Shown: one piece after another, positions 4,078 to 28,967 of the stretch
How the letters are laid out: every line of letters starts with the position of its first letter
How positions within the stretch are numbered: the first letter of the stretch is position 1
Notes under the pieces: model-generated
Seen by the model: the letters and a program-made list of their open reading frames with translations, nothing else
What the model was told of the DNA's origin: nothing
Databases searched by the model: none
Assembly: GCA_022425745.1 (NCBI GenBank)
Contig: JAKMEW010000497.1
Coordinates: 1 to 47,264 of the forward strand
From: Rubripirellula sp.
GTDB taxonomy: Bacteria > Planctomycetota > Planctomycetia > Pirellulales > Pirellulaceae
DNA length: 47,264 nt
Reading direction: 5' to 3'
Made by a program: the position numbers and the translations under genes

Positions 4078-5625
4078 TTGCTTCATCGTTCCACCGCTCC
4101 CCTGGTCGACGAATCAAACCACGCCATTCATTTCAAACTTAGGCGTTTTTCCAGCATGCAGCTCGCAGCGAAGCTCATTCTTTTATTCCTAGCGGGCATC
4201 CTTTTGGTTGTCGGGATTTTTTCCTATGCCACGATCCAATCGGACAAACAATTGGCAATCCTCGAACACCAGCAAAGAGCAAAAACAATTGCCGAAGCAG
4301 TATCAAAGGATCCGGATTTACGCGTGACCCTTGATCAATGGATCCAACCAAAGGCGTCAGTTACCAATCAATCATGGAGGGTCCAATCTCGAATCCGAAT
4401 CATTGAAATTGGTTCGTCGGGCAGGCCCGTCTCGAGTGACTTCCCGAAAGATCTTGTGCTTACGCAAAAAGAAATTACGACTGTCACTCGCACGGACGAA
4501 TTTGGTCAACCTCGATTCTTCTCGTATTTACCTCTCACAGACGGATCTTCTTCCTCTGTAAACAACCAACGTATTGAAGTATCAGATACCGATCATCAGG
4601 CAACACAACGCATTCGTCGGTCTCTTGTTTCATCCATTGCGGCTCTCCTTGGCGTCACCTCATTATCCGGAGTCATCATCTGGATCGGTGGCATCAGAAT
4701 GGTTGGTCGGCCACTGACTCTCTTGACTGAGAAAGTTCAGAGAATTGGGCAGGGGGATTTCACAGAACCCGTTGAATTGAAAACAAAAGATGAACTTGCC
4801 CGTCTCGGTGATGCCATCAATGAAATGTGCACACAGCTATCGGCACAAAGGGACACCATCAACCAAGAAACGCAATCAAAGCTAGAAGCCATTGAGCACT
4901 TACGACACTCTGACCGCTTGACCAGCGTCGGCCAAATGGCGGCAGGTTTTGCGCATGAAATTGGAACGCCATTAAACGTCATACTCTGTCGGGCTGAGCT
5001 AATTGCCACCGGCGCGATGCCTGCCGAGCAGATTCAAAAGAATGCCGAGACAATCAAACAAGAGTCACAACGTATCTCTAGGATCGTCAGGAGCCTTCTG
5101 GATTTTTCGCGTCCAACAAAACCCCATTGTCAGCAGGTTGACCTAAAAAACTTACTTCAAAAAACCTGCGATACACTGCAGCCGTTGGCAAAAAAAGAAT
5201 GTTCTCAGATTCTTTTGCATATGCCGAACGACAACCCCAACACGTTTATTGACCCTATACAAATCGAACAGGTCTTAACAAACTTGATAATCAATGGAAT
5301 TCAAAGCACGGGAGACCAAGGAACCGTTGACATTTCACTAGGCAGCGAAAAAATCCCGGAAGAACATGGCGAGAAATCCATATCGCGTACCTATCACGTG
5401 ATCACGCTAACGGACAATGGCATGGGGATGAGCGCCGATCAGCTTGAAAGGATTTTTGACCCTTTTTTCACTACAAAAACTGTGGGCGATGGAACCGGCC
5501 TCGGCCTGTCAATCGCGCACGGCATCGTCAGAGAACACGGTGGTTGGATAGACGTTGAAAGCGATTTAGGGCAGGGCAGTACCTTTCGAGTCTTCTTACC
5601 TTCAGATCAAACATCATCACCATGA
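4078..5625 (+). CDS. Membrane sensor histidine kinase of the NtrB/ZraS type
   Basis: A 515-aa two-component sensor. Transmembrane helices at about 29-51 and 183-205 enclose a periplasmic domain of about 130 residues; HAMP follows at about 205-258. The HisKA phosphoacceptor is His293 in GFAHEIGTPLNV, a variant of the usual HEIRNPL seen in NtrB-like kinases. The ATPase domain has the N box (NLIINGIQ), G1 (DNGMGM), F box (DPFFTTK) and G2 (GTGLGLSI). The start is uncertain: a TTG at 4078 gives an extra 26 residues, while the ATG at 4156 begins just before the first membrane helix and seems more natural. A 22-codon frame at 4074-4142 could be a leader peptide. The gene overlaps the response regulator gene by ATGA, so the pair is translationally coupled and should phosphorelay to it. 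Confidence 0.9.
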   Translation: MLHRSTAPLVDESNHAIHFKLRRFSSMQLAAKLILLFLAGILLVVGIFSYATIQSDKQLAILEHQQRAKTIAEAVSKDPDLRVTLDQWIQPKASVTNQSWRVQSRIRIIEIGSSGRPVSSDFPKDLVLTQKEITTVTRTDEFGQPRFFSYLPLTDGSSSSVNNQRIEVSDTDHQATQRIRRSLVSSIAALLGVTSLSGVIIWIGGIRMVGRPLTLLTEKVQRIGQGDFTEPVELKTKDELARLGDAINEMCTQLSAQRDTINQETQSKLEAIEHLRHSDRLTSVGQMAAGFAHEIGTPLNVILCRAELIATGAMPAEQIQKNAETIKQESQRISRIVRSLLDFSRPTKPHCQQVDLKNLLQKTCDTLQPLAKKECSQILLHMPNDNPNTFIDPIQIEQVLTNLIINGIQSTGDQGTVDISLGSEKIPEEHGEKSISRTYHVITLTDNGMGMSADQLERIFDPFFTTKTVGDGTGLGLSIAHGIVREHGGWIDVESDLGQGSTFRVFLPSDQTSSP

Positions 5626-6986
5626 GCAAAACAGAACCGTATATTCTGATCGTTGATGACGAAGCGTCAATGCGAGAACTGGTGGAAGAAGTGCTTCAAC
5701 CAATGGGTTTCGCGTGCACCTCGGTAGGTAGCGCAGCCGAAGCCCTTAAAGCAATCTCTGCAAATACTATTGACGTTGTGTTGACCGATATCAAGATGCC
5801 ACAGACTTCGGGACTCGACCTGTGTCAAACCATTCACGAATTACGGCCGGATATCCCTGTCATCATCATGACTGCCTTTGGTTCTTTGGATACAGCGATA
5901 GAAGCGATTCGAAGAGGAGCCTACGACTTTGTTACAAAACCATTCGAGCTTGAATTGCTACGACTCACTGTAAAACGAGCCTCCAATCACCGCACACTAA
6001 CCAAACAAATTGAATTCCTCGAAAACCTTGAGAAAACGGACATAAAAAACCACTCACTCATCGGCGCAAGTGAGGTCATGACTCACTTGCGTTCCACCAT
6101 CAATCGAGTTGCTCGCAGCGATGCATCGATCTTGATTACTGGAGAAAGTGGTACGGGTAAGGAACTCATTGCCAAGTCAATTCACCAGAATAGCGACCGC
6201 AATCAACAACCTCTTATCGCAGTAAATTGTGGAGCAATCTCCGAAAATCTTTTGGAGAGTGAATTGTTTGGTCATGTCAAAGGCGCTTTCACCAATGCCG
6301 AAAAAGATCGCCAAGGTCTAATCAAAGCTGCAGAAGGTGGCACACTCTTTCTCGACGAAATTGGAGAGATGCCCTCATCCATGCAAGTTAAACTCCTTCG
6401 TGCCTTAGAAGAGAACACCATACGACCGGTGGGCGGTAACGAGGAAATACCGTTTAACGTCAGGATTGTGGCAGCCACTCATCAAGACCTTGAAACCTCT
6501 ATCGAGGCGGGCAGCTTCAGGGAAGATCTTTTCTACCGGATAAACGTGATCCAACTGTACGCGCCTCCGCTACGTAGCCGCGGTAGCGATGTCCTAGAAC
6601 TTGCTTCGCATTTTCTAGAGCGGTTTTCGAGTAAAAACCAAAAATCTATTGAAGGATTTACTCAAACGGTAGCTGAAAAGCTCGTCACCTACTCGTGGCC
6701 TGGCAATGTCAGAGAGCTACGGAACGTCATGGAAAGAGCGGTGGCGTTGACCGCTGTGAATCAGATCACAGTTGAAGACCTTCCCAAAAAACTCATCAGC
6801 CATCAAAGTGATCAGATTGTGATTGGGGGAGAAAGCCCTGACGAACTCGCTCCGCTCTCGGCAATCGAAGATCAATACATTCAACACGTCGTAAGAGCAG
6901 TCGGCGGTAACCGAACACTCGCTGCCAAAATACTAGGGCTCGACCGCAAAACACTCTACCGAAAACTAAAGCAGTTCAACGTTTAA
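5622..6986 (+). CDS. NtrC-family sigma-54 activating response regulator
   Basis: 454 aa with the classical three domains. The receiver (1-120) has Asp56 in VVLTDIKMP as the phosphorylation site, acidic residues in VDDE, Thr84 and Lys106. The AAA+ domain (about 145-385) has Walker A GESGTGKE (174-181), Walker B TLFLDE (241-246) and the WPGNVREL motif. A Fis-type helix-turn-helix closes the protein (about 410-454: GGNRTLAAKILGLDRKTLYRKL). The sigma-54 contact loop reads GAFTNA (221-226) instead of GAFTGA; the critical F-T pair is kept, so activity is still likely. It is coupled to the kinase gene by ATGA. The likely target is the operon's own promoter at 2091-2106. Its 3' end overlaps the convergent ATPase gene by 21 nt. 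Confidence 0.93.
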   Translation: MSKTEPYILIVDDEASMRELVEEVLQPMGFACTSVGSAAEALKAISANTIDVVLTDIKMPQTSGLDLCQTIHELRPDIPVIIMTAFGSLDTAIEAIRRGAYDFVTKPFELELLRLTVKRASNHRTLTKQIEFLENLEKTDIKNHSLIGASEVMTHLRSTINRVARSDASILITGESGTGKELIAKSIHQNSDRNQQPLIAVNCGAISENLLESELFGHVKGAFTNAEKDRQGLIKAAEGGTLFLDEIGEMPSSMQVKLLRALEENTIRPVGGNEEIPFNVRIVAATHQDLETSIEAGSFREDLFYRINVIQLYAPPLRSRGSDVLELASHFLERFSSKNQKSIEGFTQTVAEKLVTYSWPGNVRELRNVMERAVALTAVNQITVEDLPKKLISHQSDQIVIGGESPDELAPLSAIEDQYIQHVVRAVGGNRTLAAKILGLDRKTLYRKLKQFNV

Positions 6987-9900
6987 CCAGCGAGCTAGAT
7001 CCTCTGGGTTGGGACACTCAAATACCCGACATTTTTGCACTCCACCGTCTGCATCGTCATACAAAAGGATTGTGGCCCCTGATAACTGCGATGCCTCTGA
7101 TGAATCAATAAGGAATGCGGAGTCGGAAGGATTCATTTGACCAAGCAAACGCAATTCAAGATCTCGGTGGGAAGAACGTGGCAACCATCGAGTGAGCGTT
7201 TCTACTGAAGCACACGCGATAACTGAAAAAATATTAACCGATGGCCCATCTTTCAGTATCGATTGAAATGCTGCGCTTGCGGATTTCGCGTCAGTATCGC
7301 CGCTGAGTGAAAAACTAAAATTCTCTTCTTGCCTCAATTCTCGAAAACGCTCGAGCGGATCGATAAAAATAAAGAGAGGTGGGTGATCCTGATCACCATC
7401 CATACGTGCTTGTACCAACTTCTCGATCTCAATGATTTTCGATTCACAATCTCGCGGCGCCGCAACCACCACACTGAACTCGCTGAGATCTAGCGACTCC
7501 CAGAGAGGCTTCTCAGCACGTTTTCGATGCCCTTCAAAGACATGAATTTGCGACGAAGGATGCGTCTTTAAATAAGAAACTAAAAGCAATGCTTGGATTG
7601 CATTACGCACTTCTTCGCTTGCGACAACCAGAAGATTCCTTCCTGGCTCATCACGAAACTGAACAGAAACTGGAGGGCCGATCTCTACCGACTCACCGAT
7701 CAAACCAATCACATTCTCATTTGAGTCTTGAAGTAATGCGACATCCGCTAACTCACCGCGCCAGCGAGATGGCCGGTTACCCTCAAAGACTACGCGTGCT
7801 TGCAAACCAGACTCAAATTCGGCATCGCGTGAAGTGATCTTCTGCAACATCCGCTGATGCTCGGAAGCTGAGAGCCAGGCAACTTGAAAAGGTTGGTTGC
7901 CCTCTACAAGTCCACCAGCGTCATTATAAATCGCTTCGCCGGGACGTCGGATCATTTTTGCAGCAGTGTTATCGTCGGATAGTATCAGGGACGCATCAGA
8001 CTCCGAACATTGCATTGCGATTCGAATGGCCATCTGCCCAAGCGTTGCTCGTGGCAAAGAGTACGCCCCGGCAAGTGACTGACTACTCAAAACAACATGC
8101 AAGCCAAACGACCTTCCTTGCCTGACAATTCGATCCAACAGCATCGTGCATTCATTGGCAATTCGATCATCACGTACAAATAACTCTTGGAATTCATCAA
8201 CCACCAAAACAATTCGAGGTAACTGCTCGCCTGCCTTCTTCTTGTACTGCGCTATACTCTGAACGCTATGAACCCTGAATTTTTCACCGCGTTCTTGCAA
8301 CTCACGATCGAGACGCTGCAGAACGCTCCTGCCAAACTCTCTTTCGCTCTCGATACCGATCACACGAGCATGCGGTAAGCCGCTATCAGCGTAAGGCTTA
8401 AATTCGACCCCCTTCTTAAAATCAAGGAGAAAATATTGAAGCTGATCTGGCTGATATTTCATTGCTCCCGCGGTGATAAGTGAATGCAGAAGTGTACTTT
8501 TTCCAGACCCTGTCTTTCCCGCGATCAGGACATGCTGCTTCACACCTTCACCGATTGATAGAAAAATCGGTCGACCTGCACCTTGAGTACCAAGTGTGAT
8601 CGCAAAGCCATCATCCGTTGTATTTTCAGGCGCAGCTTCCTCGTTGATCAATTGACCCAGCGGAACCTCAACCCTCGCAGCCTGTACAGCGTTTCGACCA
8701 AGACGATCAATCAACTGCTGACGTTCTTCGTTATCTGGACCAATATGCGGGGAAAGCTCAAATTGATTGAGCCGGTCGATTTGCAATCTCCAGCCCAACT
8801 CCTCGCTCACATCAATTCGGAGACATTTGGACTGGATTGGCGCTGGCATGTCACTAGGCCAAACGGCCTTACGATCACCCACCATCAACACTGTATTGCC
8901 ACACCGAAGACCACTTTCAATGAGAGCATTCATGTGTCGGTAAGCATTGCGATTTAGACCATTTGGAAAACCGACCGCCGCAACAACCGAATAGGGCTCG
9001 GCCATTGCGCCGGCCTCCCGATTGTAGTCTTCGATGCGCTCAAAACGATCTCGCAAACAGGACTGCAATAAATCCTCAGCATGATGAACCATCTCGCCCA
9101 AACGCGTCTCTATGTGTTCTTCAGTTGTCCAAACTCGATGACCTACCATTTGCGGATCATAGTCCGCTAAGGACATGAAATTTGTAAAATTCTGTCCGCG
9201 TCCCAACGGATCGATTAGCACTAAGTTCGCTCTTGAAGCGGGAACGGAGCCTAATAAACGCCACAAAATTCGATGGATAAATTCCACAGCCTGAGGCATG
9301 GTTGAATCATCCGAAGTGATGATTAAACCAGAGTGCAGACGACGATGCAGCACAACCGGCAGATCGGTGAACTCCACGAACTCACTCGAAAACGCTTCTT
9401 CACCAGATCTCTCAAACTGCCCAAGCGATTTGCTCGATGCGTCAATCAATGAATGCTTGACAGAAGAAATCCAGGGTTCAATATTCAATTTCCCGATGGG
9501 TAAAAAATCCAATGTTTCAGTCGGTTCTGACCGCGATTCAGCAAGTAAGTTCCAGTCAGTGAGTCGATCCTGAACCCTATCGCTGGATTGGATAACTCGA
9601 CGTTGCATGTCATCAATCCCTCTAAGCAGTCGATCATATATCCGCTGATTTTCTTTTATTTGCTGCTCATCAAGCTGTCTCTTTTCGTCGGTCAACTCGT
9701 GATCCGCTTCAACCAGCTCCTTTGATATCTCCTCAGCGAGACGATCAGCGTGCTGCCTCATCTGATGATTCAAATCTTGATTATGAGAAGCAAAGCGATC
9801 ATTTAAAGACTGTATTGCAGACTGAATCTGTTCTGATTGCGTTGCCTGCTCCGATACTAATCGATCCTCTAAAGCTTTTTTGGCCTCACTTTGCCAGTGC

Positions 9901-10901
9901 GAGGCTGTGTCGACCTCGGTATCACATTGCTGTAACAGGCGTTTTTCTGAATCCGCAAACCGGCTGAACAAGAACTTCTGATACCTGAGAAACTCTTTCT
10001 CAAAACCAGCAAGTAATGGTGCTATCGCGTTGAAGTGGCTTCGGGTTTGTGCCTTGAGCGGAAACATCAGACAGACGTAAAAACCAAACCCAACGAGACC
10101 GGATATCGCTGGCCCAATCACTAACCAAAGAAGCTGAGGAATATCAGCAGGGAAGGGCCGATAAAAGTAACCCAAAAACGCCAATAAGAAACTCGTTAAA
10201 CAACCGGCAAGTGGCAAGAACCAAGATTCCACAATCCTTGCGACGGTGGTACCAGTGAGTGATTGAAGCAGAGAATCAACGTGTTGTATCTGTGTGTCTG
10301 TATAGTGTCCAAAATCGAAGGCACGATCGAACTGAACGGGTGGGCTCGCCGCCTGCGATGAATCAGCGTTACTGCTATTAGGTAGCCCATCAAGACGACG
10401 CACAACAATCGCATCGATCTCTTTATATTTCGAAACGAATCTTTCGCGATGTTTCTCGATCAGACGATTTTCTTGCCTGTGGCTAACTCGCAATTCCTGG
10501 AGAGATCGATCACATGATTTCTTTGCTTTTGACTTCTTTTCCGCGGTCTGCTGCTCAATCCCCTTAAGTTGCTCCGCCAGCTTTCGGCGAAACAAAACCG
10601 ACAGTCGACTGAGTTGGTTCTGCTGATCAGCAATCTGAATTTCGTAATCAGAAATACAAGCTTCTTGCTGGCGATCCCAATCATCGAGTAGATCACGCCG
10701 TCGCTTTCTGCAACTACTGACGACTTGCGCGCGGGATTGCTCCGCCTGAGCGGCTGCTTTCTCTTGTTCTGCTTGCTGCCTCAATGAGACTTTTTCCAGT
10801 TCAGAACGACACAGCTGAAATCGTGTATTGAAACCATCAATAAGCTTCTGCTGGCGATTTGGTGCCAAGATTCCGACCGGTCCAACAGCATTTTTCTTCA
10901 T
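6966..10901 (-). CDS. Large membrane FtsK/SpoIIIE ATPase, EssC/EccC-like architecture
   Basis: 1311 aa. The order is a charged coiled-coil region (about 20-165), two transmembrane helices (about 226-247 and 257-281), a second long coiled coil (about 300-445), then three ATPase-like segments. The first (about 470-740) has a Walker-B-like LVLIDPLGRG (560-568) but no P-loop. The second (about 765-1015) is canonical: Walker A GKTGSGKST (795-803) and Walker B VLVVDEFQEL (898-907), with DFKKGVEF and the FtsK-type QSLAGAYSLPRATLGQMA. The third (about 1060-1310) keeps the fold pattern (RNLLVVASEEVRNA, FIFIDPLE) but has lost the P-loop. Three tandem FtsK-type segments after a membrane anchor is the layout of type VII secretion motors. 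Here the active site is the middle one, and coiled coils replace FHA domains. It is not the cell-division FtsK: no gamma domain or four-helix membrane region is seen. It is the last gene of a minus-strand group. Confidence 0.85.
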   Translation of the reverse strand: MKKNAVGPVGILAPNRQQKLIDGFNTRFQLCRSELEKVSLRQQAEQEKAAAQAEQSRAQVVSSCRKRRRDLLDDWDRQQEACISDYEIQIADQQNQLSRLSVLFRRKLAEQLKGIEQQTAEKKSKAKKSCDRSLQELRVSHRQENRLIEKHRERFVSKYKEIDAIVVRRLDGLPNSSNADSSQAASPPVQFDRAFDFGHYTDTQIQHVDSLLQSLTGTTVARIVESWFLPLAGCLTSFLLAFLGYFYRPFPADIPQLLWLVIGPAISGLVGFGFYVCLMFPLKAQTRSHFNAIAPLLAGFEKEFLRYQKFLFSRFADSEKRLLQQCDTEVDTASHWQSEAKKALEDRLVSEQATQSEQIQSAIQSLNDRFASHNQDLNHQMRQHADRLAEEISKELVEADHELTDEKRQLDEQQIKENQRIYDRLLRGIDDMQRRVIQSSDRVQDRLTDWNLLAESRSEPTETLDFLPIGKLNIEPWISSVKHSLIDASSKSLGQFERSGEEAFSSEFVEFTDLPVVLHRRLHSGLIITSDDSTMPQAVEFIHRILWRLLGSVPASRANLVLIDPLGRGQNFTNFMSLADYDPQMVGHRVWTTEEHIETRLGEMVHHAEDLLQSCLRDRFERIEDYNREAGAMAEPYSVVAAVGFPNGLNRNAYRHMNALIESGLRCGNTVLMVGDRKAVWPSDMPAPIQSKCLRIDVSEELGWRLQIDRLNQFELSPHIGPDNEERQQLIDRLGRNAVQAARVEVPLGQLINEEAAPENTTDDGFAITLGTQGAGRPIFLSIGEGVKQHVLIAGKTGSGKSTLLHSLITAGAMKYQPDQLQYFLLDFKKGVEFKPYADSGLPHARVIGIESEREFGRSVLQRLDRELQERGEKFRVHSVQSIAQYKKKAGEQLPRIVLVVDEFQELFVRDDRIANECTMLLDRIVRQGRSFGLHVVLSSQSLAGAYSLPRATLGQMAIRIAMQCSESDASLILSDDNTAAKMIRRPGEAIYNDAGGLVEGNQPFQVAWLSASEHQRMLQKITSRDAEFESGLQARVVFEGNRPSRWRGELADVALLQDSNENVIGLIGESVEIGPPVSVQFRDEPGRNLLVVASEEVRNAIQALLLVSYLKTHPSSQIHVFEGHRKRAEKPLWESLDLSEFSVVVAAPRDCESKIIEIEKLVQARMDGDQDHPPLFIFIDPLERFRELRQEENFSFSLSGDTDAKSASAAFQSILKDGPSVNIFSVIACASVETLTRWLPRSSHRDLELRLLGQMNPSDSAFLIDSSEASQLSGATILLYDDADGGVQKCRVFECPNPEDLARWLNVELL

Positions 10902-11031
10902 GGAAGATCATTACAAGGGAGAGAAGTACCCAATCGGAACCGGCATAATCGGCTCAGCAATCCAAGACCCAAAAAGCGTGTGGGTACGCGTGCTAAATAA
11001 GGGTAGGAATTCCAAACGCCTGCAAGCAATC

Positions 11032-11268
11032 TCACTTATCGTCCAACAGCTCTTTTTCCGCATCAGAAACGGAATCTGTCAATTGTCCCAGCATACTAGA
11101 TAAACGCTGCAAGCTTGGACCGATGGTCGTTAGGTGCTGCTTCTCGTATCGCGTACGACGTTCATCTTTCCAAAATTCACCAGTTGCCTGCCACAATTTT
11201 GAAAAATCACCGAATACCCGACGCAATTGGCCGTTTTGCTCAGCTAACCGAGATCTCATCTTTGACAT
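11032..11268 (-). CDS. Small helical protein, 78 aa, possible WXG100-like partner
   Basis: The preferred start is the ATG at 11268, because a longer reading would run into the upstream gene. The product is almost wholly helix-forming, with a first segment LAEQNGQLRRVFGDFSKLW, an aromatic turn W-x(6)-W (FSKLWQATGEFWKDERRTRY) and a second amphipathic helix ending in DSVSDAEKELLDDK. Size (about 80-100 aa), absence of a signal peptide and placement next to an EssC/EccC-like ATPase recall WXG100 (EsxA-type) proteins. The canonical W-x-G motif is not present, though, so homology is only inferred. Alternatively it is a cytosolic adaptor of the ATPase. It starts 22 nt after the HEAT gene's stop and lies 130 nt before the ATPase gene, so an operon is likely. 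Confidence 0.6.
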   Translation of the reverse strand: MSKMRSRLAEQNGQLRRVFGDFSKLWQATGEFWKDERRTRYEKQHLTTIGPSLQRLSSMLGQLTDSVSDAEKELLDDK

Positions 11269-11290
11269 ACAGAATCCATTTCTTGTTAAC

Positions 11291-12910
11291 TCACTCACCG
11301 ACTGAAGGTGAAATATCACCACCGGCGAAATCACGGTCCGGATTGAAAGTGCGAAGCATTTTCCGCCCTTTGTAAAGATTGAAAATATCTTGCGGCCCCA
11401 TGCAGCGTTCACCAGATCCGGTGACATATTCAATGCTTTCTAATCCATCTGTAATCACAATGAACGGTCGATCATCGCGTGTTGCAGTGAATACGCCTGC
11501 CATTTCATCTAGAAACCTCCCAATCAAAACGGCATCGATATTCTGCAGGCCACATCGTTCTAGGTGCTGTTTCCACTGCTCCAGCTGCTCGCGCTGAAGA
11601 TCATTCCAATTTTCTGAGGTTAGAGTGAAAATCTCGTCATGCTCCGCATGCCATCCAGCATAGATCGCGTAGGTGTCACTGAACGACAGGTCAGTGAGAT
11701 CTGATGACATCGCAAAGGTGACTGGACCGGTGATTCCCACGTTCGAGTAACTTTGTTCACCAAAATTATATTCAAATCGAACCAAGGAGATATCAATTGG
11801 ATCATTGAAACTGGGCCAGAGACAACGCATTGAGTGGAGCACTTCAACTCTTGTTGGTGGAACGCCCATCTGTTGCGGTTGACTCAACCACAAAGCTAAT
11901 TCGGCTTCTGAGGTAGACTTTGGACTGCGGAATTTATCATCAACCTCTTCACCAAAACCGAGTTCTTCAGCGTATTGAATGACCCTCAGTCTTGCAGCAG
12001 GTTCATTCAATAATTCAATAAGTCGGTCTTTCCCTTGGTCATCACCCAACCGCGCCAAAGCGCCTGCCGCCTCACTCTGCACGCGACGATGTCGCAGCTC
12101 CATCGCTTGATGTAGTTTGCCAATTGAAGAAAGATCCCCGATCAAGGCTAACGCGTCACTAAGCGATACCGCCAAGGCAACCGCCTCCGCCAAACGCGCC
12201 TGAACAATGGGTACCTCTGTCCCAAATGTTCTTGGGTCATCTTCAAACTGCCCTAACCGACCGACGACTTCCCCTAAAAGGTTCCGCAACATCTCTACAT
12301 ATTCTGATGCTGGGTGGTGCTGTAGCTTAGGTTGACGGAATAAATAATTTGCAAGGTCAAGCAAAGGTGAGGCTAAGCTCGCGTGTTGCAATAAGGTCAA
12401 CGAGACGGGAAAAAGTGCCTTTACATTCCAATCTGGCCGTTGCATCAAAGGACTCAACACCTGCGCCGCTTCAACCCACTTAGCAGGTGGAGCAATCGTC
12501 AAAGATTCCACTAATTGTTGCAACGCTTCATCTTGTTGATGAATGGCGTAAAGTTGCTGCAACAGAAATCGATTGGTGGTGCGAGGTGGTATCGAGGACT
12601 CAAGTTGCTGAATATCTTCAACTGCCAAACTTTGCACTACAGCCCAACCTTGCTCTAAAAAAGCGGTATGGAGAATGCTCAGAATGGTACCGACGATTGC
12701 AGGATCCGCATTTACCAGGTCTGACCGCGCCTCGATGAGATGCTGTAATAAATCGGGTGCGTTACCTCGCGATTTCTCAGATAGTTCGCGCAGTTGCCAT
12801 CCGGCGGCGACTGGGTCGACCTCAGCAAGTAGTAAGGCTTGAAGGTTATCTTGTAACAAAGCAGTCACTCTAAAGACACAGGTAAGATGAATCAGTAAAG
12901 AATCGGACAA
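11291..12910 (-). CDS. HEAT-like helical repeat protein with unknown C-terminal domain
   Basis: 539 aa from a TTG at 12910 that directly abuts the stop of the upstream gene; a GTG at 12868 is an alternative start (525 aa). Residues about 15-320 are alpha-helical and Leu/Ala-rich. A HEAT-like pair around 252-318 (HRRVQSEAAGALARLGDDQG, then DRLIELL and RVIQYAEELG) suggests a solenoid scaffold. Residues about 340-539 form a separate mixed domain with many aromatics (VRFEYNFGEQSYSNVGITGP, YAIYAGWHAEH, AVLIGRFLDEM) and no catalytic motif I know. It has no signal peptide or membrane helix. It precedes the small helical protein and the membrane ATPase, so a role as a cytosolic scaffold or chaperone of that system is possible but inferred from position only. 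Confidence 0.8.
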   Translation of the reverse strand: MSDSLLIHLTCVFRVTALLQDNLQALLLAEVDPVAAGWQLRELSEKSRGNAPDLLQHLIEARSDLVNADPAIVGTILSILHTAFLEQGWAVVQSLAVEDIQQLESSIPPRTTNRFLLQQLYAIHQQDEALQQLVESLTIAPPAKWVEAAQVLSPLMQRPDWNVKALFPVSLTLLQHASLASPLLDLANYLFRQPKLQHHPASEYVEMLRNLLGEVVGRLGQFEDDPRTFGTEVPIVQARLAEAVALAVSLSDALALIGDLSSIGKLHQAMELRHRRVQSEAAGALARLGDDQGKDRLIELLNEPAARLRVIQYAEELGFGEEVDDKFRSPKSTSEAELALWLSQPQQMGVPPTRVEVLHSMRCLWPSFNDPIDISLVRFEYNFGEQSYSNVGITGPVTFAMSSDLTDLSFSDTYAIYAGWHAEHDEIFTLTSENWNDLQREQLEQWKQHLERCGLQNIDAVLIGRFLDEMAGVFTATRDDRPFIVITDGLESIEYVTGSGERCMGPQDIFNLYKGRKMLRTFNPDRDFAGGDISPSVGE

Positions 12911-19609: not shown

Positions 19610-20716
19610 ATGAGTGGCACTCCACCACCTTCGCCGAACCCGTCACCCGCTCAACCAAACGACGGTCCCGCAAAGTCAATCAATCCTTCTCAAGCACCTC
19701 CGCGGAATTTAGCGGATGTCCTACGTGAATTTGCTGGGCACCAGCAAACGATGCGGGATGAGCTTGGAAAGGTAATCGTTGGACAGACGGACACCATTGA
19801 ACAACTCCTAGCCGCGATCTTTACTCGAGGCCACTGCCTTTTGGAAGGTGTTCCCGGACTTGCAAAAACCCTGATGGTTAGCACGTTATCTGAAATCCTC
19901 GATGTCTCATTTAAGCGGATTCAGTTCACTCCCGACCTGATGCCATCAGATATCACTGGCACACAGGTGCTGGAAGAAGACGAATCAGGAAAACGAACTT
20001 TTCGCTTTGTGGAAGGGCCGATATTTACCAACATTTTGCTCGCAGATGAGATTAACCGAACGCCACCGAAAACACAGGCGGCACTGCTTGAAGCGATGCA
20101 GGAACGGCAAGTGACCATCGGACGCGAGACCTACAACTTGCCAGCTCCATTCTTCACGATTGCAACGCAAAACCCGATCGAGCAAGAAGGCACCTATCCA
20201 TTACCTGAAGCTCAATTAGATCGCTTCATGTTTAACATCAAAATTGACTACCCGACTGCGGATGAAGAAGAGCAGATTCTCACTGCAACGACTCGAGGTG
20301 AGCTCGCCAAGGTCAGCAAGGTGTTATCGGCAAGAGCAATTCTTAATGTGCAAAAACTGGTGTCCAGTATTGCGGTGAACCCTTACGTGATTCGCTATGC
20401 CGCTCGGCTCGTTCGTGCGACTCGACCGAGTGACGATACTGCTCCGGAATACGTCCGGAACCTTGTCGATTGTGGTGCAGGCCCACGAGCAGGCCAAAAT
20501 CTGATTGCCGGAGCGAAAGCGATTGCCGCCATGGACGGACGGTTCAGCATTGATCCGCAAGATATACGCAGGATCGCCACGCCCGTACTTCGCCATCGGA
20601 TAAGCACCAACTTTCAGGCGCAAGCCGAAGGAATGGACTCGGACTCCATTATCAAACAGCTACTAATTGATATCCAAGAGCCGACGCCGGACAAACTTTC
20701 CAGGCAGAGCAAGTAA
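19610..20716 (+). CDS. moxR: MoxR-family AAA+ ATPase
   Basis: 368 aa, AAA_3 class. A Pro/Ser-rich, probably disordered N-terminus (1-32) precedes the ATPase. Walker A is GVPGLAKT (80-87), Walker B ILLADEIN (142-149) and sensor 1 is [20 protein letters not shown]. The lid domain with ALDRF-like QLDRFMFNI and [11 protein letters not shown] follows. MoxR proteins act as chaperone-like ATPases that mature or insert metal into partner complexes, together with vWA proteins. It is the first gene of a plus-strand operon with DUF58 and BatA-like genes; the gap to the DUF58 gene is 72 nt. Confidence 0.95.
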
Positions 20717-20788
20717 TGGTGGCACGACAGCTTCCACCACTGCACATGAATCTTATTTACCAATCACTCATTTGCTCAATCCATCGCT

Positions 20789-21694
20789 ATGCCGAGTTCG
20801 CTTTCACCAGAATCCCTGCAACAGATCCAGCGACTGGATCTCAAAGCAAGAATGGTGATCCGTGGATTTTTGCAAGGGTTACACTCGAGCCCGTTCCATG
20901 GATTTTCGGTCCAGTTCAGCGAACATCGTCGGTACAACCGCGGTGACGACCCAAAATTGATTGATTGGCTAGCCTACGCAAAAACTGATAAATACTTCAT
21001 TAAACGCTTTGAAGCCGAAACGAATTTAACTGCGTACCTTGTCATGGATTTATCGAAATCCATGGGCTTCACCAGAAATCAGAGCATGAACAAATTTGAG
21101 TACTGCACATGCCTTGCTGCATCACTCACGTATTTGATGACCATGCAACAGGACCCAGTTGGCTTACTTACTTGTGCAGAAAAGGTTCGTGCTTTGCTGC
21201 CCGCAAGGAGTCGCCGCGGGCATCTTGGTGATGTCTTAGGCCAACTCAATCAACTTGAACCATCCGGCACGACACACCTTCCTGACTGCCTGACTCAGAT
21301 CGCAGCGATGCTGAAGCAGCACTCGCTCGTCATCTTCCTAACAGACCTGCTACCCAATTCCGACGGTGGCGGACAACCTGATGAAGTCATCTCGTCTTTA
21401 GCTCGACTTCGCCATGGAGGCCACGATGTCATCGTCTTTCATATTTTAGACGAAGCTGAAGTGAATTTTCCGTATTCTGGATCAGTGGAATTTGAAGATA
21501 CCGAATCAGGCCAAACAATCACTGTAGATGCGTCTGAAATTCGCGATGAGTACCTTCAGGACCTCGATGAATTTCGCCAACAGTATCGCAATGGGTGCGA
21601 TCGCCTTCGAATCGATTATGTTCCCCTTGATACTAGCATGCCCTTTGATAAAGCCCTGACAGAGTATCTGATCCAACGCCAAAATAGGTTTTAG
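20789..21694 (+). CDS. DUF58 protein with vWA-type fold
   Basis: 301 aa. The DUF58 signature RRYNRGDDPKLIDWLAYAKT (47-66) is followed by YFIKRFEAETNL. The vWA-like domain has a MIDAS-type motif D-L-S-K-S (87-91), then VIFLTDLLPNSDGGG and HDVIVFHILDEAEVNFPYSG. DUF58 proteins are the partners of MoxR ATPases and act at the cytoplasmic face of the membrane; substrates are mostly unknown. This one has no membrane helix. The gap to the downstream BatA-like gene is 17 nt, so co-translation in one message is very likely. Confidence 0.93.
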   Translation: MPSSLSPESLQQIQRLDLKARMVIRGFLQGLHSSPFHGFSVQFSEHRRYNRGDDPKLIDWLAYAKTDKYFIKRFEAETNLTAYLVMDLSKSMGFTRNQSMNKFEYCTCLAASLTYLMTMQQDPVGLLTCAEKVRALLPARSRRGHLGDVLGQLNQLEPSGTTHLPDCLTQIAAMLKQHSLVIFLTDLLPNSDGGGQPDEVISSLARLRHGGHDVIVFHILDEAEVNFPYSGSVEFEDTESGQTITVDASEIRDEYLQDLDEFRQQYRNGCDRLRIDYVPLDTSMPFDKALTEYLIQRQNRF

Positions 21695-21711
21695 CAAACG
21701 CTGGCAACTGA

Positions 21712-24147
21712 ATGAGCTTTTTGAATGCGACATTGATTTTTGGCAGCCTTACCATTGCGATCCCGATCGTGATGCATCTACTTTCGCGCCGACAGCCAAA
21801 ACGTGTTTCATTTCCATCGATTGGGTTCCTGAAACCTAAAGCGACCTACTCCAAGAGTCGTGTGCAGATCAAACGCTGGTGGCTTTTGGCAGCAAGGGTT
21901 GCTCTCCTCGCTATTCTCTCAGTTGCACTCGCGCAGCCCATCATTAGCGCAGATTTCTCGTCGACATGGTTCAGCATTGCAGCAATTTCGTTTTTGGGAT
22001 TTTGCCTGCTAATCCTCGCAACGGTCGGCCACCGCCGCAACTTCAGCCGATCCATCGTACGTGGGCTTGCTTGTTCCGGAATCATCTCGCTCGCAGCAGC
22101 GATTACTTGGTCAATCCTGACTGCAGCCAAAACGCCAGTCGCCTCGCAGACACTGAACAACCCGCAGGCGGTCGCTATCATCATTGATAACGGACCCTCT
22201 TCGGCGTGGACAGAGAAAGAGGGGTCAAGGCTGGCACAGATGAAATCTGCATGCGAGCAATTCATCAAGCAACTACCGGCTCGCAGTCAAGTTTGCATCA
22301 TCGATCGATCCACAAGAAATGCCACCTTTAGCATTGATCAAGTCAGTGCACTGAACAAATTAAAGCAACTGAAGGTCGTCCAATCTGTACAACCGATTGA
22401 TAATCAAATTGCAATGGCGAGGAGCACCCTCGAGACAAGCCGACTCAGTTCACAACAAATCTTGGTATTTTCGGATTTCAGCGAATACAGCTGGGATGGA
22501 ATTGCACCATTCGAAACGAACACATTTAGGAACAAACAGGGCAGCATCAACTTAACCCTTTTCGATTTCGGTAAATTTGAGGGTCAAAACCGGGGTCTCA
22601 CCAATCCTCAACTCTCTGACCGAAGCCCTGCTCCTCATACACCTACTCCGATTGGCTTTACGGCCTACAGTGAGTCAACCCTCGAATCAGCCGAAACCTC
22701 CATCACAGTCGAGCTTGAAGTTTTTCAAAATACTCAATCGCTTCCGATGCTCAAGAATGGAACCATTGAGTTCCCAAGCGTTGAAACAGCTGATCGCACG
22801 AGCATACGATTAACCAATAACGGACAACGAGAGTTGGTACTCAATCTCCCGTCGTTACCACTTGGCATTCATCACGGTCGAATTCGACTCGCGGGAAAAG
22901 ATGCAACCATGCTGGACAACGAAAGATACTTTTCCATCGAAGTCTTACCTGCGACACGTATCTTGATTGTTAGCGATGAACCCGCTGCCTCCAGAGTCGT
23001 CTTCAATGCAATTGGTGCAACGGAAAACGCAACTCAAGGCTCTGAATACCTAGCAGACACCATCAGCTTTGCAGATCTACCACTCGCTCGTCTCGACTCC
23101 TATGAAGTCGTCGCTCTGCTCGATCCACCGGCCAACATTGCGACAACCAAGAATGCTGTGGAAGCCTACCTCCAAACAGGAGGCAAGCTACTTGTTAGCT
23201 TAGGCCAACAAAGCACCATCGCTTCAATCCGAGAAGCATGGTTTCCGGGAAGCGGCATAAACTCGGAAGAAGTAAACAAACCCAAGAGGTGGCGCAGTCC
23301 CAAACCCGGTACCTTCTTACAACCAATAACGGTTCAACATCCGATCCTGCACTCCCTCGTTCGTAACGTTCCGTGGGGAAATCACCGCATTGAGCAATAT
23401 TGGAGCGTGAAAGCGGAACCAAACGATTCAGTCTTGATGAACTATGCTGGGACTGACCAACCCGCAGTGATTGAGAGAGTAGTTGCCAACCAGAGCGGTT
23501 TGACGGGAAAACTCATACTCCTCACCACTCCTTTCCCCGCCGTTGCCGATGACAACAAAAAATGGAACCAACTATTTGGGGAAAATGCGTGGCCAGCGTG
23601 GCTTCTATGTCGGGAATCCATTGACTATCTCGCAAACCGCAACAGTGGGTCAAGCAATGCAATGGTTGGCCAGACGTTTGCGTTGCAACTCAGCAAAGAA
23701 CAAAATTCGCTCGATGGCGGAAAAGTGTTCATGTTCGAACCCGGTCACCGTCAGCCTAAACCGATCATTGGCTTGGGCGCAAGCCAATTCCTGCGAATCA
23801 ACGACGTCACCGCTGCCGGCACCTACTGGATACGAGGAGAAGGACTTGAAAATGGCTTCTCAGCTAATCTAAACCCGCAGGCCACCAGCATGACTCGGAT
23901 CGACCCGTCCACCCTCACGGCCGGATTGAACACTGAGCAATATCAGGTCATTACGAATCTGGAAGCGATGAAGTCGTTCACGAATCTCAAAACCAAGCGG
24001 GTCCCTTTACACTCACCGGCTATTCTCCTGGCTGCTATCGTTTTCATTCTCGAAAATATCCTTGGCAATCGCTTTTACCAAAACCGCACTCGCAACATAG
24101 AGAACGGTTCCGCGGTCGCTACTTACCCTCGAAATCCGGCACCATGA
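21712..24147 (+). CDS. BatA-like membrane protein with vWA-like domain
   Basis: 811 aa. The N-terminus is the BatA signature (FLNATLIFGSLTIAIPIVMH, then LLSRRQPKRVSFPSIGFL). Three further membrane helices follow at about 57-78, 85-105 and 113-135, and one C-terminal helix at about 763-783 (SPAILLAAIVFILENILG). A degenerate vWA-like domain begins at AVAIIIDNGPSSAW, with the MIDAS serines partly kept. A beta-sandwich-like region and a GATase1-like segment (EVVALLDPPANIATT, LQTGGKLLVSLGQQ) fill the rest. It belongs to the MoxR/DUF58/BatA group, where such proteins present periplasmic domains to partners. It is the third gene of the operon. Confidence 0.9.
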   Translation: MSFLNATLIFGSLTIAIPIVMHLLSRRQPKRVSFPSIGFLKPKATYSKSRVQIKRWWLLAARVALLAILSVALAQPIISADFSSTWFSIAAISFLGFCLLILATVGHRRNFSRSIVRGLACSGIISLAAAITWSILTAAKTPVASQTLNNPQAVAIIIDNGPSSAWTEKEGSRLAQMKSACEQFIKQLPARSQVCIIDRSTRNATFSIDQVSALNKLKQLKVVQSVQPIDNQIAMARSTLETSRLSSQQILVFSDFSEYSWDGIAPFETNTFRNKQGSINLTLFDFGKFEGQNRGLTNPQLSDRSPAPHTPTPIGFTAYSESTLESAETSITVELEVFQNTQSLPMLKNGTIEFPSVETADRTSIRLTNNGQRELVLNLPSLPLGIHHGRIRLAGKDATMLDNERYFSIEVLPATRILIVSDEPAASRVVFNAIGATENATQGSEYLADTISFADLPLARLDSYEVVALLDPPANIATTKNAVEAYLQTGGKLLVSLGQQSTIASIREAWFPGSGINSEEVNKPKRWRSPKPGTFLQPITVQHPILHSLVRNVPWGNHRIEQYWSVKAEPNDSVLMNYAGTDQPAVIERVVANQSGLTGKLILLTTPFPAVADDNKKWNQLFGENAWPAWLLCRESIDYLANRNSGSSNAMVGQTFALQLSKEQNSLDGGKVFMFEPGHRQPKPIIGLGASQFLRINDVTAAGTYWIRGEGLENGFSANLNPQATSMTRIDPSTLTAGLNTEQYQVITNLEAMKSFTNLKTKRVPLHSPAILLAAIVFILENILGNRFYQNRTRNIENGSAVATYPRNPAP

Positions 24148-24269
24148 TCTAATCGCCCATTCCGACAAAACGATTTGGCCTGCAAGACAGAAGATCGAAG
24201 TGGTGATAAAATTATTTGTCGGTGCCAAACACTTGCCTCACCTTGCAAGAATGCTATTGCAGCGTCCCC

Positions 24270-25313
24270 ATGGAACAAATCATCAAACCTGCGCTCCTTC
24301 GGTTCAACGAGGAATTACTTTTTTTGTCGAGGGCAGGAATTTCATTCGGCCTAGGTGAGTTGGATCAACTGGACCGCAACGCTCGAAACGGAGAGGCAAG
24401 CGATTCCGCGGAAACGATCCTAGCTCGCGTCAACGCGTTCCTGAAAGAATCCAAGCTTTCGGATGAATCGATCGCACAAGCGATCTCAGACAACTTCCCG
24501 AATTCACGAAATTACTGTCGCGCGGTCGCCATCTTGTCGACAACGGGTAGCGAATCACTTGCGTTGGAGCAACTTCGTTTTCCATCTCGAACCAGAGCAG
24601 CAATCACACGCACCATCGGTAACTCGCTGATCTACCCCTCAATCCTGCTTATTTTTGTGGCCCTGGGATTTTCGGTGATCTGCTTGTTCACAACGCCGAC
24701 CATCACAAACCTTTACGAGCAGGTTCAACAAGAACTGCCAACGAGTGTCCGAGTACTTGAAACCGGACGTCGACTCCTGCCTGTTTGGGGCACTGCGCTA
24801 CCTGTTGCAATGATTTTGTTTTGGGTCTGGTGGCATCGCACGGGCAAATCAAGGTCGTGGACTTGGTTACCCGGAAACACCTCTTATTATCAAACCGCAA
24901 TCAAAGCTCACTCGGCCCGCCTGCTTGGACAACTCTTAAGCAAAGGATGCAACCCGAAGTTAGCAATTGAACTGGCATCACCACACAAGCGAGCAAACAC
25001 GACTCACATTCATGGATTAGCCAGCTCTGCGTCGGGCGACTCGATCACTTCACTACCGCCATTAATGCAATGGGCAATTCAGAGAAGCGATGCTAACGAA
25101 CAATCACTCCAAGACTCACTTTCTGTCGTGTCGGAAATCTACGCCAAGAGTGCAACGAGACAGACTCGGTCGTGGCGATCATTGCTACCGACAATTTTAG
25201 GGATTCTGTTTGGTGGATTGATCGTGTTTGCCTATAGCTTCAGCCTCTTCGCTCCGGTGATAGAAGTGCTGTACGATCTGGCAAGTCCACTAGGGGGCCT
25301 CAGTGACCCCTAG
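24270..25313 (+). CDS. GspF-like inner-membrane protein 1
   Basis: About 347 aa from the ATG at 24270; a TTG at 24216 would add 18 residues. The type II secretion / type IV pilus F-domain pattern is visible: a cytosolic helical N-domain (to about 120), then three membrane segments (SLIYPSILLIFVALGFSVIC; LLPVWGTALPVAMILFWVWW; LPTILGILFGGLIVFAYSFS, the last near the C-terminus). A second cytosolic helical domain lies between the second and third. After the first membrane helix comes FTTPTITNLYEQVQQELPTS, equivalent to the P.F..M/...G..LP.. region of GspF but divergent. It is the first of three tandem GspF-like genes that differ strongly in sequence. It probably anchors pseudopilin assembly, but the partner ATPase is not in the window. 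Confidence 0.75.
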   Translation: MEQIIKPALLRFNEELLFLSRAGISFGLGELDQLDRNARNGEASDSAETILARVNAFLKESKLSDESIAQAISDNFPNSRNYCRAVAILSTTGSESLALEQLRFPSRTRAAITRTIGNSLIYPSILLIFVALGFSVICLFTTPTITNLYEQVQQELPTSVRVLETGRRLLPVWGTALPVAMILFWVWWHRTGKSRSWTWLPGNTSYYQTAIKAHSARLLGQLLSKGCNPKLAIELASPHKRANTTHIHGLASSASGDSITSLPPLMQWAIQRSDANEQSLQDSLSVVSEIYAKSATRQTRSWRSLLPTILGILFGGLIVFAYSFSLFAPVIEVLYDLASPLGGLSDP

Positions 25314-25375
25314 AAATCACGACGGCAACTAATTGAAATCCACAACAAAAACTCGGCCAGCGTTTCAAACCAAAA

Positions 25376-26425
25376 ATGCCGACTAGTACTCGCGATGAAA
25401 AACTCAACTGGGAAGATGAACCAATGAACGATGGAGGAGCTGACAAGACGCTAGACACCATCTTCAAAAACAAGGACTCTCTCATCGCTGCGCTGAACGC
25501 TCTTGTTGAAGACCTGCATCAACTGCAGACTAGAAATCAGCTACACGCCGTCATTCGCGACCTTGAAGAAGCCCAATCGCCAGAGGCAATCAGATCAAAC
25601 AAACAGTTGATGCATTGGCTTCCAGTACTCGCCTCAGGATTCAGCGACGAAGCGATAAAACACAGCTTAACGGACCTGATTGACTATGCTTCTCGCGATC
25701 ACGAATTGAGACTTGAGAGAAAACGAGCGTTGGCATACCCCGCAGTGCTGGTCGTGGGAATCGTATTCGTCTTGGGTCTGCTAACCATCCTTGTTGTCCC
25801 CATCTTCGACAAGATGTTTGAGGACTATGGCATCCAATTGCCGGGTGCGACCCAAATGCTCATTGCTCTCTCCCGAGAGGTCAGAGAACAACCGCTCTAC
25901 ATTCTCTTAAAAATCGCGAGCCTAGTCGCCATCGCGATTGTTGCGAAGAAAGGTTGGTCGCGATTAGGAATCACTCACCGCCTGTTTAAATTTCTCGTCA
26001 ACGGCAATTCGGCGAGCGTTAGCGAGATGTCCATTCTTACTGGTCGGCTCGCTGAACTTCTTCATCTGGGTTTGTCACGAAACGAGGCTTTATTACTCGC
26101 GGGGCAGGGCCTCAAGAGCCATTGGTACCGTAGGGCATGTGAAGCCCTTGCGACAAGAATGGCTACAGATATGAATTGGGCAGAGAGTAAAGCAGCGAAA
26201 ATGTTTCCGAACAATGTGATTCTGGCTTTGCAGGGGAACGCAACACCTAACATTGACTTGCTACGTGAATTGTCAGCCATTTATGCCGAGCGCATCCATC
26301 ACAGAGTTGACTGGGCAACAGGAGCCTTCGCCCAGATCGCCATAGTCTGCCTCGGGGTAGCCGTTGGTTTCATTGTGATCGTGTTGTTGACGCCGTTGTT
26401 CAGCCTCATTTCTGCTCTGTCATAA
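25376..26425 (+). CDS. GspF-like inner-membrane protein 2
   Basis: 349 aa, the most canonical of the three. The N-domain (about 1-118) is followed by the membrane helix ALAYPAVLVVGIVFVLGLLT. The hallmark VVPIFDKMFEDYGIQLPGAT then follows (compare VPxFxxxFxxxGxxLP in GspF/PilC). A second membrane segment is at ILLKIASLVAIAIVAKKGW, and a second F domain begins with MSILTGRLAELLHLGLSRNE. A C-terminal helix, IAIVCLGVAVGFIVIVLLTP, ends the protein. An alternative ATG at 25424 would shorten the charged N-terminus by 16 residues. It belongs to the platform of a pseudopilin machine, 62 nt after the first GspF-like gene. Confidence 0.85.
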   Translation: MPTSTRDEKLNWEDEPMNDGGADKTLDTIFKNKDSLIAALNALVEDLHQLQTRNQLHAVIRDLEEAQSPEAIRSNKQLMHWLPVLASGFSDEAIKHSLTDLIDYASRDHELRLERKRALAYPAVLVVGIVFVLGLLTILVVPIFDKMFEDYGIQLPGATQMLIALSREVREQPLYILLKIASLVAIAIVAKKGWSRLGITHRLFKFLVNGNSASVSEMSILTGRLAELLHLGLSRNEALLLAGQGLKSHWYRRACEALATRMATDMNWAESKAAKMFPNNVILALQGNATPNIDLLRELSAIYAERIHHRVDWATGAFAQIAIVCLGVAVGFIVIVLLTPLFSLISALS

Positions 26426-26440
26426 AAAGGAATCGCACGC

Positions 26441-28942: not shown

Positions 28943-28967
28943 AACCGACCCACCGGAGTCCTCCACG

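What the first reader, a model, noticed from the sequence alone, without database searches (positions are those of the whole stretch)
6966..12910. Type VII-like ATPase locus: EssC/EccC-style motor, small helical protein and HEAT-like scaffold
The 1311-aa protein has a membrane pair, coiled coils and three FtsK-type segments, but only the middle one has a P-loop. The gene just upstream encodes a 78-aa all-helical protein, and the one before that a HEAT-like protein with a novel C-terminal domain. This looks like a stripped-down or divergent type VII secretion relative (or a related protein/DNA pump) without FHA, EccB/D/E or mycosin genes. I consider it the best candidate for an undescribed system in the window.
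Basis: partly seen in the sequence, partly recalled or inferred. Interest (0 to 1): 0.7.

Follow-up and report, generated by a model that had tools for sequence, protein, structure and literature searches.

The report
Dispersed four-gene WXG100–FtsK machine
The window carries two of four genes of a small machine related to type VII protein secretion; in planctomycete bacteria its genes are often scattered over the chromosome yet are nearly always kept together, and what it moves is unknown.

Summary
The 1311-aa protein has an N-terminal membrane pair amid coiled coils and three tandem FtsK/RecA-type domains; only the middle one has a P-loop. The 78-aa protein upstream is WXG100-like (W-x-D instead of W-x-G) and lies upstream of the ATPase in 26 of 36 loci read. 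The HEAT protein is a bystander: 187 of 199 family genomes have it, with or without the ATPase.

The window shows half of the system. A true WXG100 protein (A) and a ~165-aa helical protein (B) lie on another contig of the same genome. In many other planctomycetes A-B-C-ATPase is one cassette. A and the ATPase co-occur almost perfectly (both in 38 of 41 and 116 of 124 genomes that have either), although 15 of 20 one-contig genomes keep them at least 440 kb apart.

It is not undescribed: a 2012 footnote describes 'solo WXG' plus a three-domain ATPase with only the middle domain active, in planctomycetes among others (PMC3482391). New here are the four-part make-up, the dispersal and the vertical inheritance. 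Export of A/B/C is inferred, not shown.

The parts
6966..10901 (-). EccC/EssC-related FtsK-family ATPase, 1311 aa
   Evidence: relatives in 39 of 294 phylum-sample genomes and 121 of 199 family genomes, own genome included, E <= 1e-30
10068..10220 (-). hydrophobic (membrane) pair, about residues 228-278, between coiled-coil stretches
   Evidence: Kyte-Doolittle scan
8667..9389 (-). N-terminal FtsK/RecA-like domain without P-loop, residues 505-745
   Evidence: hhalign against the C-terminal domain, Prob 95.0; no P-loop
7812..8639 (-). middle, intact FtsK/SpoIIIE domain, residues 755-1030
   Evidence: PF01580 E 2.9e-27; motifs aligned over 35 homologues
8496..8519 (-). Walker A GKTGSGKS
   Evidence: conserved in 35 of 35 aligned homologues
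8193..8198 (-). Walker B DE of hhhhDEFQE
   Evidence: DEF in the 34 of 35 homologues that cover it; the 35th is cut by a contig end
6987..7799 (-). C-terminal FtsK/RecA-like domain without P-loop, residues 1035-1305
   Evidence: hhalign against the middle domain, Prob 98.2
11032..11268 (-). gene C: 78-aa WXG100-like hairpin protein with W-x-D motif
   Evidence: one match in the own genome
11291..12910 (-). HEAT-like protein, neighbour but not a component
   Evidence: in 187 of 199 family genomes irrespective of the ATPase

Best explanation
A four-part, inner-membrane, type VII-like protein pump. SHOWN by sequence: three small helical proteins (A, a WXG100 protein; B, about 165 aa; C, a WXG100-like protein, the 78-aa product) are kept together with one FtsK/EccC-like ATPase that has an N-terminal hydrophobic pair, one intact and two degenerate motor domains. 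INFERRED: A and C form hairpin complexes with B, as Lap1 and Lap2 do with an LXG domain. The complex docks on a degenerate motor domain, a hexamer assembles, and the middle domain uses ATP to pass B, or the A/B/C complex, across the inner membrane. In sister systems the B position carries an extra C-terminal stretch (a nuclease-like domain, by the CoCoNuT paper), so B is the likely carrier. In Planctomycetota B is short, so either B itself is the exported product or a partner encoded elsewhere is carried.
For: Best PDB matches of the ATPase profile: 4nh0 (entry says FtsK/SpoIIIE; EccC by recall), EccC5, YukB. A: over the Pfam WXG100 cut-off in the own genome (40 bits), WXG100 in 12 of 12 members, best PDB matches HP0062, EsxB, EsxA. 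C: best PDB match EsxA, E 3.4e-4. Cassettes: A in 22, B in 21, C in 26 of 36 loci. A and ATPase: both 38, ATPase alone 1, A alone 2, neither 253 (phylum sample); 116, 5, 3, 75 (family). B in 16 of 16 chosen ATPase-positive genomes and 0 of 27 chosen negative ones. G315, G431 and G446, with a second divergent ATPase, also have a second A. At least one N-terminal hydrophobic segment in 60 of 66 ATPases. LXG-Lap1-Lap2 precedent: PMC9600955, passages read.
Against: No secretion data. No effector-like fusion among the 22 aligned A proteins, and one full A hit per genome outside the three with a second system. The Yxxx[D/E] export motif is absent: 0 of 22 A, 1 of 21 B, 0 of 26 C. No YukD in 20 genomes; no apparatus gene among recurrent neighbours; no outer-membrane part seen. 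The carrier role of B rests on weak profile matches to the longer proteins (E 3.6e-9, 1.5e-5, 3.4e-5, 7.5e-4; Caballeronia 0.16, not significant, a small search set, so the E-values flatter), and Pfam names no convincing domain in them. Copy numbers do not match everywhere: G311 has an extra C-terminal half of the ATPase but one A.
Confidence: 0.55

Rival explanations
1. Not a secretion machine but a stress- or conflict-response ATPase: the WXG100-like proteins are regulators or assembly factors of a motor that acts inside the cell, as may hold for the TerY-P/CoCoNuT siblings.
For: Sister copies in G315, G431 and G446 sit among vWA, kinase-like and helicase-like genes (domain names by eye); the Caballeronia plasmid copy lies with VWA, CARF, PP2C and kinase genes and the Rhodococcus plasmid copy near TerD genes. 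PMC11090510 thinks a different mechanism likely for forms without membrane helices.
Against: The stand-alone form has N-terminal hydrophobic segments, unlike the three vWA-linked copies, lacks their partner genes next to it and forms a separate clade.
Confidence: 0.25
2. A DNA translocase (FtsK/HerA-like) with helical accessory proteins.
For: FtsK-superfamily motor; PADLOC SspH, mad8 and HerA profiles match the core.
Against: EccC/EssC models score far above FtsK (106.7 vs 24.6 bits); WXG100 partners; the genome has another FtsK-like protein (C544).
Confidence: 0.08
3. The HEAT protein, the 78-aa protein and the ATPase are the functional unit, with HEAT as scaffold.
For: HEAT and ATPase genes are neighbours in all 13 sampled genomes of the own genus and in at least 5 others (coordinates). 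In G422 and G466 HEAT is beside C although the ATPase is megabases away.
Against: HEAT is in 72 of 78 ATPase-negative family genomes; among the 39 loci blastp finds it only in the window, L001 and L002.
Confidence: 0.07
4. A degenerate remnant of a standard T7SS whose other membrane components are lost or encoded elsewhere.
For: Homology to EccC/EssC and WXG100.
Against: YukD 0 of 20 with a working control. The motor is under constraint: Walker A in 35 of 35 aligned homologues, and the tree follows taxonomy. EssB and EccB were not searched genome-wide.
Confidence: 0.05

Closest known systems
'Solo WXG' with YueA-like three-domain ATPase, 'mobile versions of T7SS' (PMC3482391, Table 1 footnote 6; passage read)
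   [quoted passage not shown] planctomycetes are named
   Different: The footnote gives no parts list; here there are three small partners, and the stand-alone planctomycete form looks vertically inherited and often dispersed
WXG100/EssC-like module of TerY-P triads and Type III-A CoCoNuTs (PMC11090510, section 10 read)
   Same: N-terminal coiled coil, three ATPase domains with only the middle one active, two WXG100-type proteins and a coiled-coil protein; A, B-like protein, small protein, ATPase in that order in L143 and L145
   Different: The window form has a hydrophobic pair and no vWA, kinase or phosphatase gene beside the ATPase; its B is short; it is a separate clade
Helicobacter pylori 'WXG100 secretion system' with HP0062/HP0066 (PMC4978471, passages read; HP0062 structure, PMC3397514, passages read)
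   Same: A's best PDB match is HP0062 (3fx7, E 5.9e-13), which also has WRD at the hairpin bend; an FtsK/SpoIIIE gene in the cluster
   Different: The H. pylori cluster lists a DnaK homologue and an HNH/EndoVII nuclease; neither was seen beside the window's genes by eye
T7SS subtypes a-j (PMC11217815, abstract and passages read)
   Same: EccC/EssC-like ATPase and WXG100 protein
   [quoted passage not shown] this one has three domains and no YukD found
LXG effector with Lap1 and Lap2 (PMC9600955, passages read)
   Same: A longer helical protein made with two small helical partners
   Different: No toxin domain on B in Planctomycetota; sequence relation to LXG or Lap proteins was not tested

Membership tests
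Type VII secretion system (T7SSa-j) | EccC/EssC ATPase, membrane-anchored, tandem FtsK domains | tested here: inconclusive
   Hydrophobic pair and EccC homology met; three domains, one P-loop, where PMC11217815 reports four; NCBIfam equivalog cut-offs not reached (106.7 bits against 509)
Type VII secretion system (T7SSa-j) | WXG100 protein(s) | tested here: met
   A over Pfam cut-off in the own genome, 12 of 12 members match; the window's C is below cut-off, E 0.11
Type VII secretion system (T7SSa-j) | W-x-G at the hairpin turn | tested here: not met
   W-x-D in 22 of 22 A and 26 of 26 C, W-x-G in none; HP0062 also has WRD
Type VII secretion system (T7SSa-j) | Yxxx[D/E] export motif | tested here: not met
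   last 30 residues: 0 of 22 A, 1 of 21 B, 0 of 26 C
Type VII secretion system (T7SSa-j) | YukD/EsaB-like protein (most subtypes) | tested here: not met
   PF08817 in 0 of 20 ATPase-positive genomes; of 14 control genomes it rings in Bacillus subtilis
Type VII secretion system (T7SSa-j) | other membrane components (EccB/D/E or EssA/EssB/EsaA) | tested here: inconclusive
   none recognised among recurrent neighbours; genome-wide search not run
Type VII secretion system (T7SSa-j) | secretion of the WXG100 protein | not testable with these tools
   needs an experiment
Solo WXG / three-domain ATPase systems (PMC3482391) | three HerA/FtsK domains, only the middle one active | tested here: met
   activity judged from motifs only
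Solo WXG / three-domain ATPase systems (PMC3482391) | solo WXG protein | tested here: met
Solo WXG / three-domain ATPase systems (PMC3482391) | mobile | tested here: not met
   for the stand-alone planctomycete form: family labels need 12 changes on the tree, the minimum, against a shuffled mean of 31.5 (quick method); parts often dispersed
TerY-P / CoCoNuT WXG100-EssC module | flanking vWA genes; ATPase without membrane helices | tested here: not met
   the window ATPase has a hydrophobic pair; no vWA gene next to it by eye; the three vWA-linked copies form another clade

The most novel reading that the evidence does not exclude
A type VII-like protein pump that is a vertically inherited, dispersed chromosomal machine of double-membrane Planctomycetota, not a mobile weapon. 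Its only conserved cargo is its own A/B/C set, so it serves a housekeeping task such as envelope assembly or moving a structural protein into the periplasm. It would be a non-toxic, possibly ancestral branch from which the TerY-P/CoCoNuT modules arose by adding a nuclease to B and losing the membrane anchor, or the reverse.
Probability: 0.3. Interest if true: 0.75.

Novelty: new variant of a known kind. Interest (0 to 1): 0.5.

Why it matters
Type VII secretion is usually described for Actinomycetota and Bacillota, where many extra components make the core hard to define (a 2016 survey of secretion systems left it out as absent from diderm-LPS bacteria; PMC4793230, passage). Here four genes recur together, in up to four separate places of one chromosome, which points to a minimal functional core: one intact motor domain, two WXG100-type proteins and one helical carrier candidate. 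It also ties a poorly known branch, mentioned in a 2012 footnote and met again in H. pylori and in defence islands, to a testable parts list in a phylum where gene deletions are possible (PMC10632474, passages).

Tried and rejected
Rejected: HEAT protein as a component. Rejected: 'only one partner gene' (A and B found on contig C105). Rejected: contamination as the source of A and B; the genomes of L001 and L002 have A-B among the same neighbours. Rejected as mere DNA translocase. The A-only genomes G271 and G279 are probably contig ends: L102 stops just after C; L103 stops 1.1 kb after C in an open frame that looks like the ATPase's coiled-coil start, though it gave no blastp match at 1e-10. 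Not followed: the family exceptions G380, G381, G386, G412 and G470 (ATPase without A) and G390, G463 and G482 (A without ATPase; the G390 hit is 39 residues long). Partial A hits also in G328 and G420 and a second, 27-residue one in G232.

Led nowhere: AlphaFold2 of ATPase residues 470-1311 with three rows; Foldseek on the 78-aa model (7 matches with E <= 10, none <= 0.001; rank 2 is CFP10-ESAT6, E 5.9); Pfam on the longer B-like proteins; the plasmid search gave 14 records, all under 60% identity, some of them ordinary EssC or EccC; a literature search for WXG100 + Planctomycetes + type VII secretion gave 0 papers.

Rows dropped and limits: L034, L037 and L049 (my ORF picker did not return their ATPase) from the neighbourhood counts, leaving 36 of 39 loci including the window; L067 from the motif alignment (ATPase in two ORFs); L066 from family C. 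Of the 66 ATPases, 35 come from those loci and 31 from later loci by picking an ORF with the P-loop motif; each of those 31 loci yielded one, but only the 35 test its presence. Four of the 66 (L104, L105, L149, L150) repeat others and were left out of the tree with L069. The six without an N-terminal hydrophobic segment are L050 and L061 (called without their N-termini), L066, and the vWA-linked L143-L145. HMMs A, B and C were built iteratively from these loci, so hits within them are partly circular; the genome-wide searches test them better, though profiles A1, A2 and A6 hold members from some of the same genomes. The genomes were chosen by me.
Full report
CHECK. The 1311-aa protein (6966-10901, -) has coiled-coil stretches, a hydrophobic pair at about residues 228-278, and one P-loop at 795. 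Pfam finds one FtsK_SpoIIIE domain, residues 758-943. NCBIfam EccCa, EssC and EccCb match that domain far better than FtsK does (106.7, 92.3 and 88.3 bits against 24.6), all below their curated cut-offs. The flanking domains have no P-loop but relate to the others by hhalign: C-terminal vs middle Prob 98.2, E 2.8e-14; N-terminal vs C-terminal Prob 95.0, E 3.9e-8; N-terminal vs middle only Prob 3.7. These E-values are for single comparisons. AlphaFold2 with three rows was useless, so the three-domain architecture rests on sequence profiles.

RELATIVES. The ATPase is found in 39 of 294 genomes drawn from the phylum and in 121 of 199 of its family, the own genome included in both. I read 36 of 39 fetched loci in the orientation of the ATPase (L034, L037 and L049 dropped out of my ORF picking). 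Upstream lie, in order where complete, A (about 90 aa; 22 loci), B (about 165 aa; 21) and C (70-78 aa; 26), which includes the window's 78-aa protein. In the clustering of neighbours the other families seen in 4 or more loci are ORFs opposite A and B (12 loci), sensor/regulator genes (9), a roughly 430-aa family (6) and some in 4-5, at varying distances; none looks like a T7SS apparatus protein.

IDENTITY OF THE SMALL PROTEINS. A is a WXG100 protein: Pfam WXG100 matches 12 of 12 members, and the best solved relatives are HP0062 of Helicobacter pylori (3fx7, E 5.9e-13), EsxB and EsxA. C is a diverged WXG100 relative: EsxA is its best PDB match (E 3.4e-4), and 6 of 16 members match Pfam WXG100 at E <= 0.1. 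The window's own C alone scores E 0.11. Both carry W-x-D rather than W-x-G (22 of 22 and 26 of 26), as does HP0062 (PMC3397514, passages read). The C model has two helices with W33-x-D35 next to the turn.

THE MISSING HALF. The window has only C and the ATPase. A Pfam WXG100 search of the own genome gave one hit over cut-off, on contig C105 (at the loose E <= 1 used, 13 of 14 control genomes also ring, 1 over cut-off): it is A, followed by B. The genomes of L001 and L002 have the same split.

CO-OCCURRENCE. Phylum sample: A and ATPase both in 38, ATPase alone 1 (G219, where the locus is a 3.6-kb contig), A alone 2, neither 253; the two A-only cases are probably cut by contig ends. Family: 116, 5, 3, 75. 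Fisher p is about 1e-44 in both, but genomes share ancestry, so p overstates independence. B is in 16 of 16 chosen ATPase-positive genomes and 0 of 27 chosen genomes that lack ATPase and A. C is in 16 of 16 chosen ATPase-positive genomes, although for G446 the hit is doubtful (one match is the second A, the other has E 0.001). Three genomes with a second, divergent ATPase also have a second A; G311 has an extra half ATPase and one A.

DISPERSAL. Of 20 one-contig genomes with both, 15 hold A and ATPase at least 440 kb apart by listed coordinates (5 genomes); in 5 they are close. In G105, G422 and G466 ATPase, A, B and C are in four different places. Co-retention without linkage argues for a working machine and against a passenger cassette.

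INHERITANCE. In a tree of 61 ATPases, families f3, f12 and f67 are each one side of a branch, the main copies of f1 group together (support 93), and all labels need 12 changes, the minimum (shuffled mean 31.5, quick method). Counted singly, f1 needs 3 changes (its second copies, and two rows under the name Pirellulaceae) and f48 needs 2. The three vWA-linked copies are a separate clade with long branches, so their exact place is unsure. This does not fit the 'mobile' label of the 2012 footnote for the stand-alone planctomycete form; patchiness then reflects loss (inference).

SIBLINGS. In G315, G431 and G446 the second copy has one or two vWA-type genes, A, a 436-491-aa B-like protein, small proteins, an ATPase of 1039-1068 aa without hydrophobic segment, then vWA-, kinase- and helicase-like genes (domain names by eye). 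That is the module described for TerY-P and Type III-A CoCoNuT islands (PMC11090510, section 10). A Rhodococcus plasmid has an ATPase, a 314-aa B-like protein (E 3.4e-5) and an A-like protein (E 8.2e-13) near TerD genes. So the B position can carry extra sequence; the nuclease label is the paper's, not confirmed by my Pfam search.

HEAT PROTEIN. It is in 187 of 199 family genomes: 115 of 121 with and 72 of 78 without the ATPase. It neighbours the ATPase in all 13 sampled genomes of the own genus and in at least 5 others. In G422 and G466 it sits beside C but far from the ATPase, which is worth remembering but does not make it a component.

KNOWN OR NEW. [quoted passage not shown] That is this system. 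PMC4978471 (passages) lists the H. pylori counterpart as a WXG100 secretion system. PMC11217815 (abstract and passages) covers Bacillota and Actinomycetota. PMC3935865 (passages) found WXG100 proteins almost only in Actinobacteria and Firmicutes. Searches showed no print account of the A-B-C parts list, the dispersal or the vertical inheritance; apart from the papers named here I saw only their listings, subscription papers are not covered, and Anantharaman et al. 2012 was seen only as cited in PMC11090510.

MECHANISM. Most likely an inner-membrane protein pump whose substrate is B or the A/B/C complex, by analogy with LXG-Lap1-Lap2 (PMC9600955, passages). Shown: parts, domains, co-inheritance. 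Inferred: complex formation, docking, export, direction. Against it: no effectors, no export motif, no YukD, no outer-membrane partner.

Noticed in passing
window 38014-39708 (-): 564-aa protein that reads by eye as a DNA methyltransferase with a C-terminal GIY-YIG-like stretch (motifs recalled).
   Followed up: no
window 24216-27583 (+): Three consecutive genes that look by eye like diverged GspF-type inner-membrane proteins, followed by a prepilin-like protein at 28917-29843.
   Followed up: no
window 19610-24147 (+): By eye a MoxR-type AAA ATPase, a DUF58/vWA-like protein and a BatA-like membrane protein in a row, about 9 kb from the ATPase gene; a common planctomycete set by recall, not linked to the finding.
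   Followed up: no
window 5622-6986 (+) and 6966-10901 (-): An NtrC-type regulator gene and the ATPase gene converge and overlap tail to tail by 21 bases.
   Followed up: no
L143, L144, L145: Second, divergent ATPase loci with vWA-, kinase- and helicase-like genes: TerY-P/CoCoNuT-type islands in genomes of the window's family, each with its own A gene.
   Followed up: partly
L155 10996-11940: Rhodococcus conjugative plasmid: B-like protein with a Gly-rich linker and an own C-terminal stretch, next to an A-like gene and TerD genes; possible effector architecture.
   Followed up: partly
L056 7565-12253 (-): ATPase of 1562 aa, longer than its kin: about 110 extra residues within the C-terminal domain and about 110 after it (from the blastp pieces).
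   Followed up: no
L102 and L103: Contig ends fall just after the A-B-C genes, probably explaining two apparent A-only genomes.
   Followed up: partly
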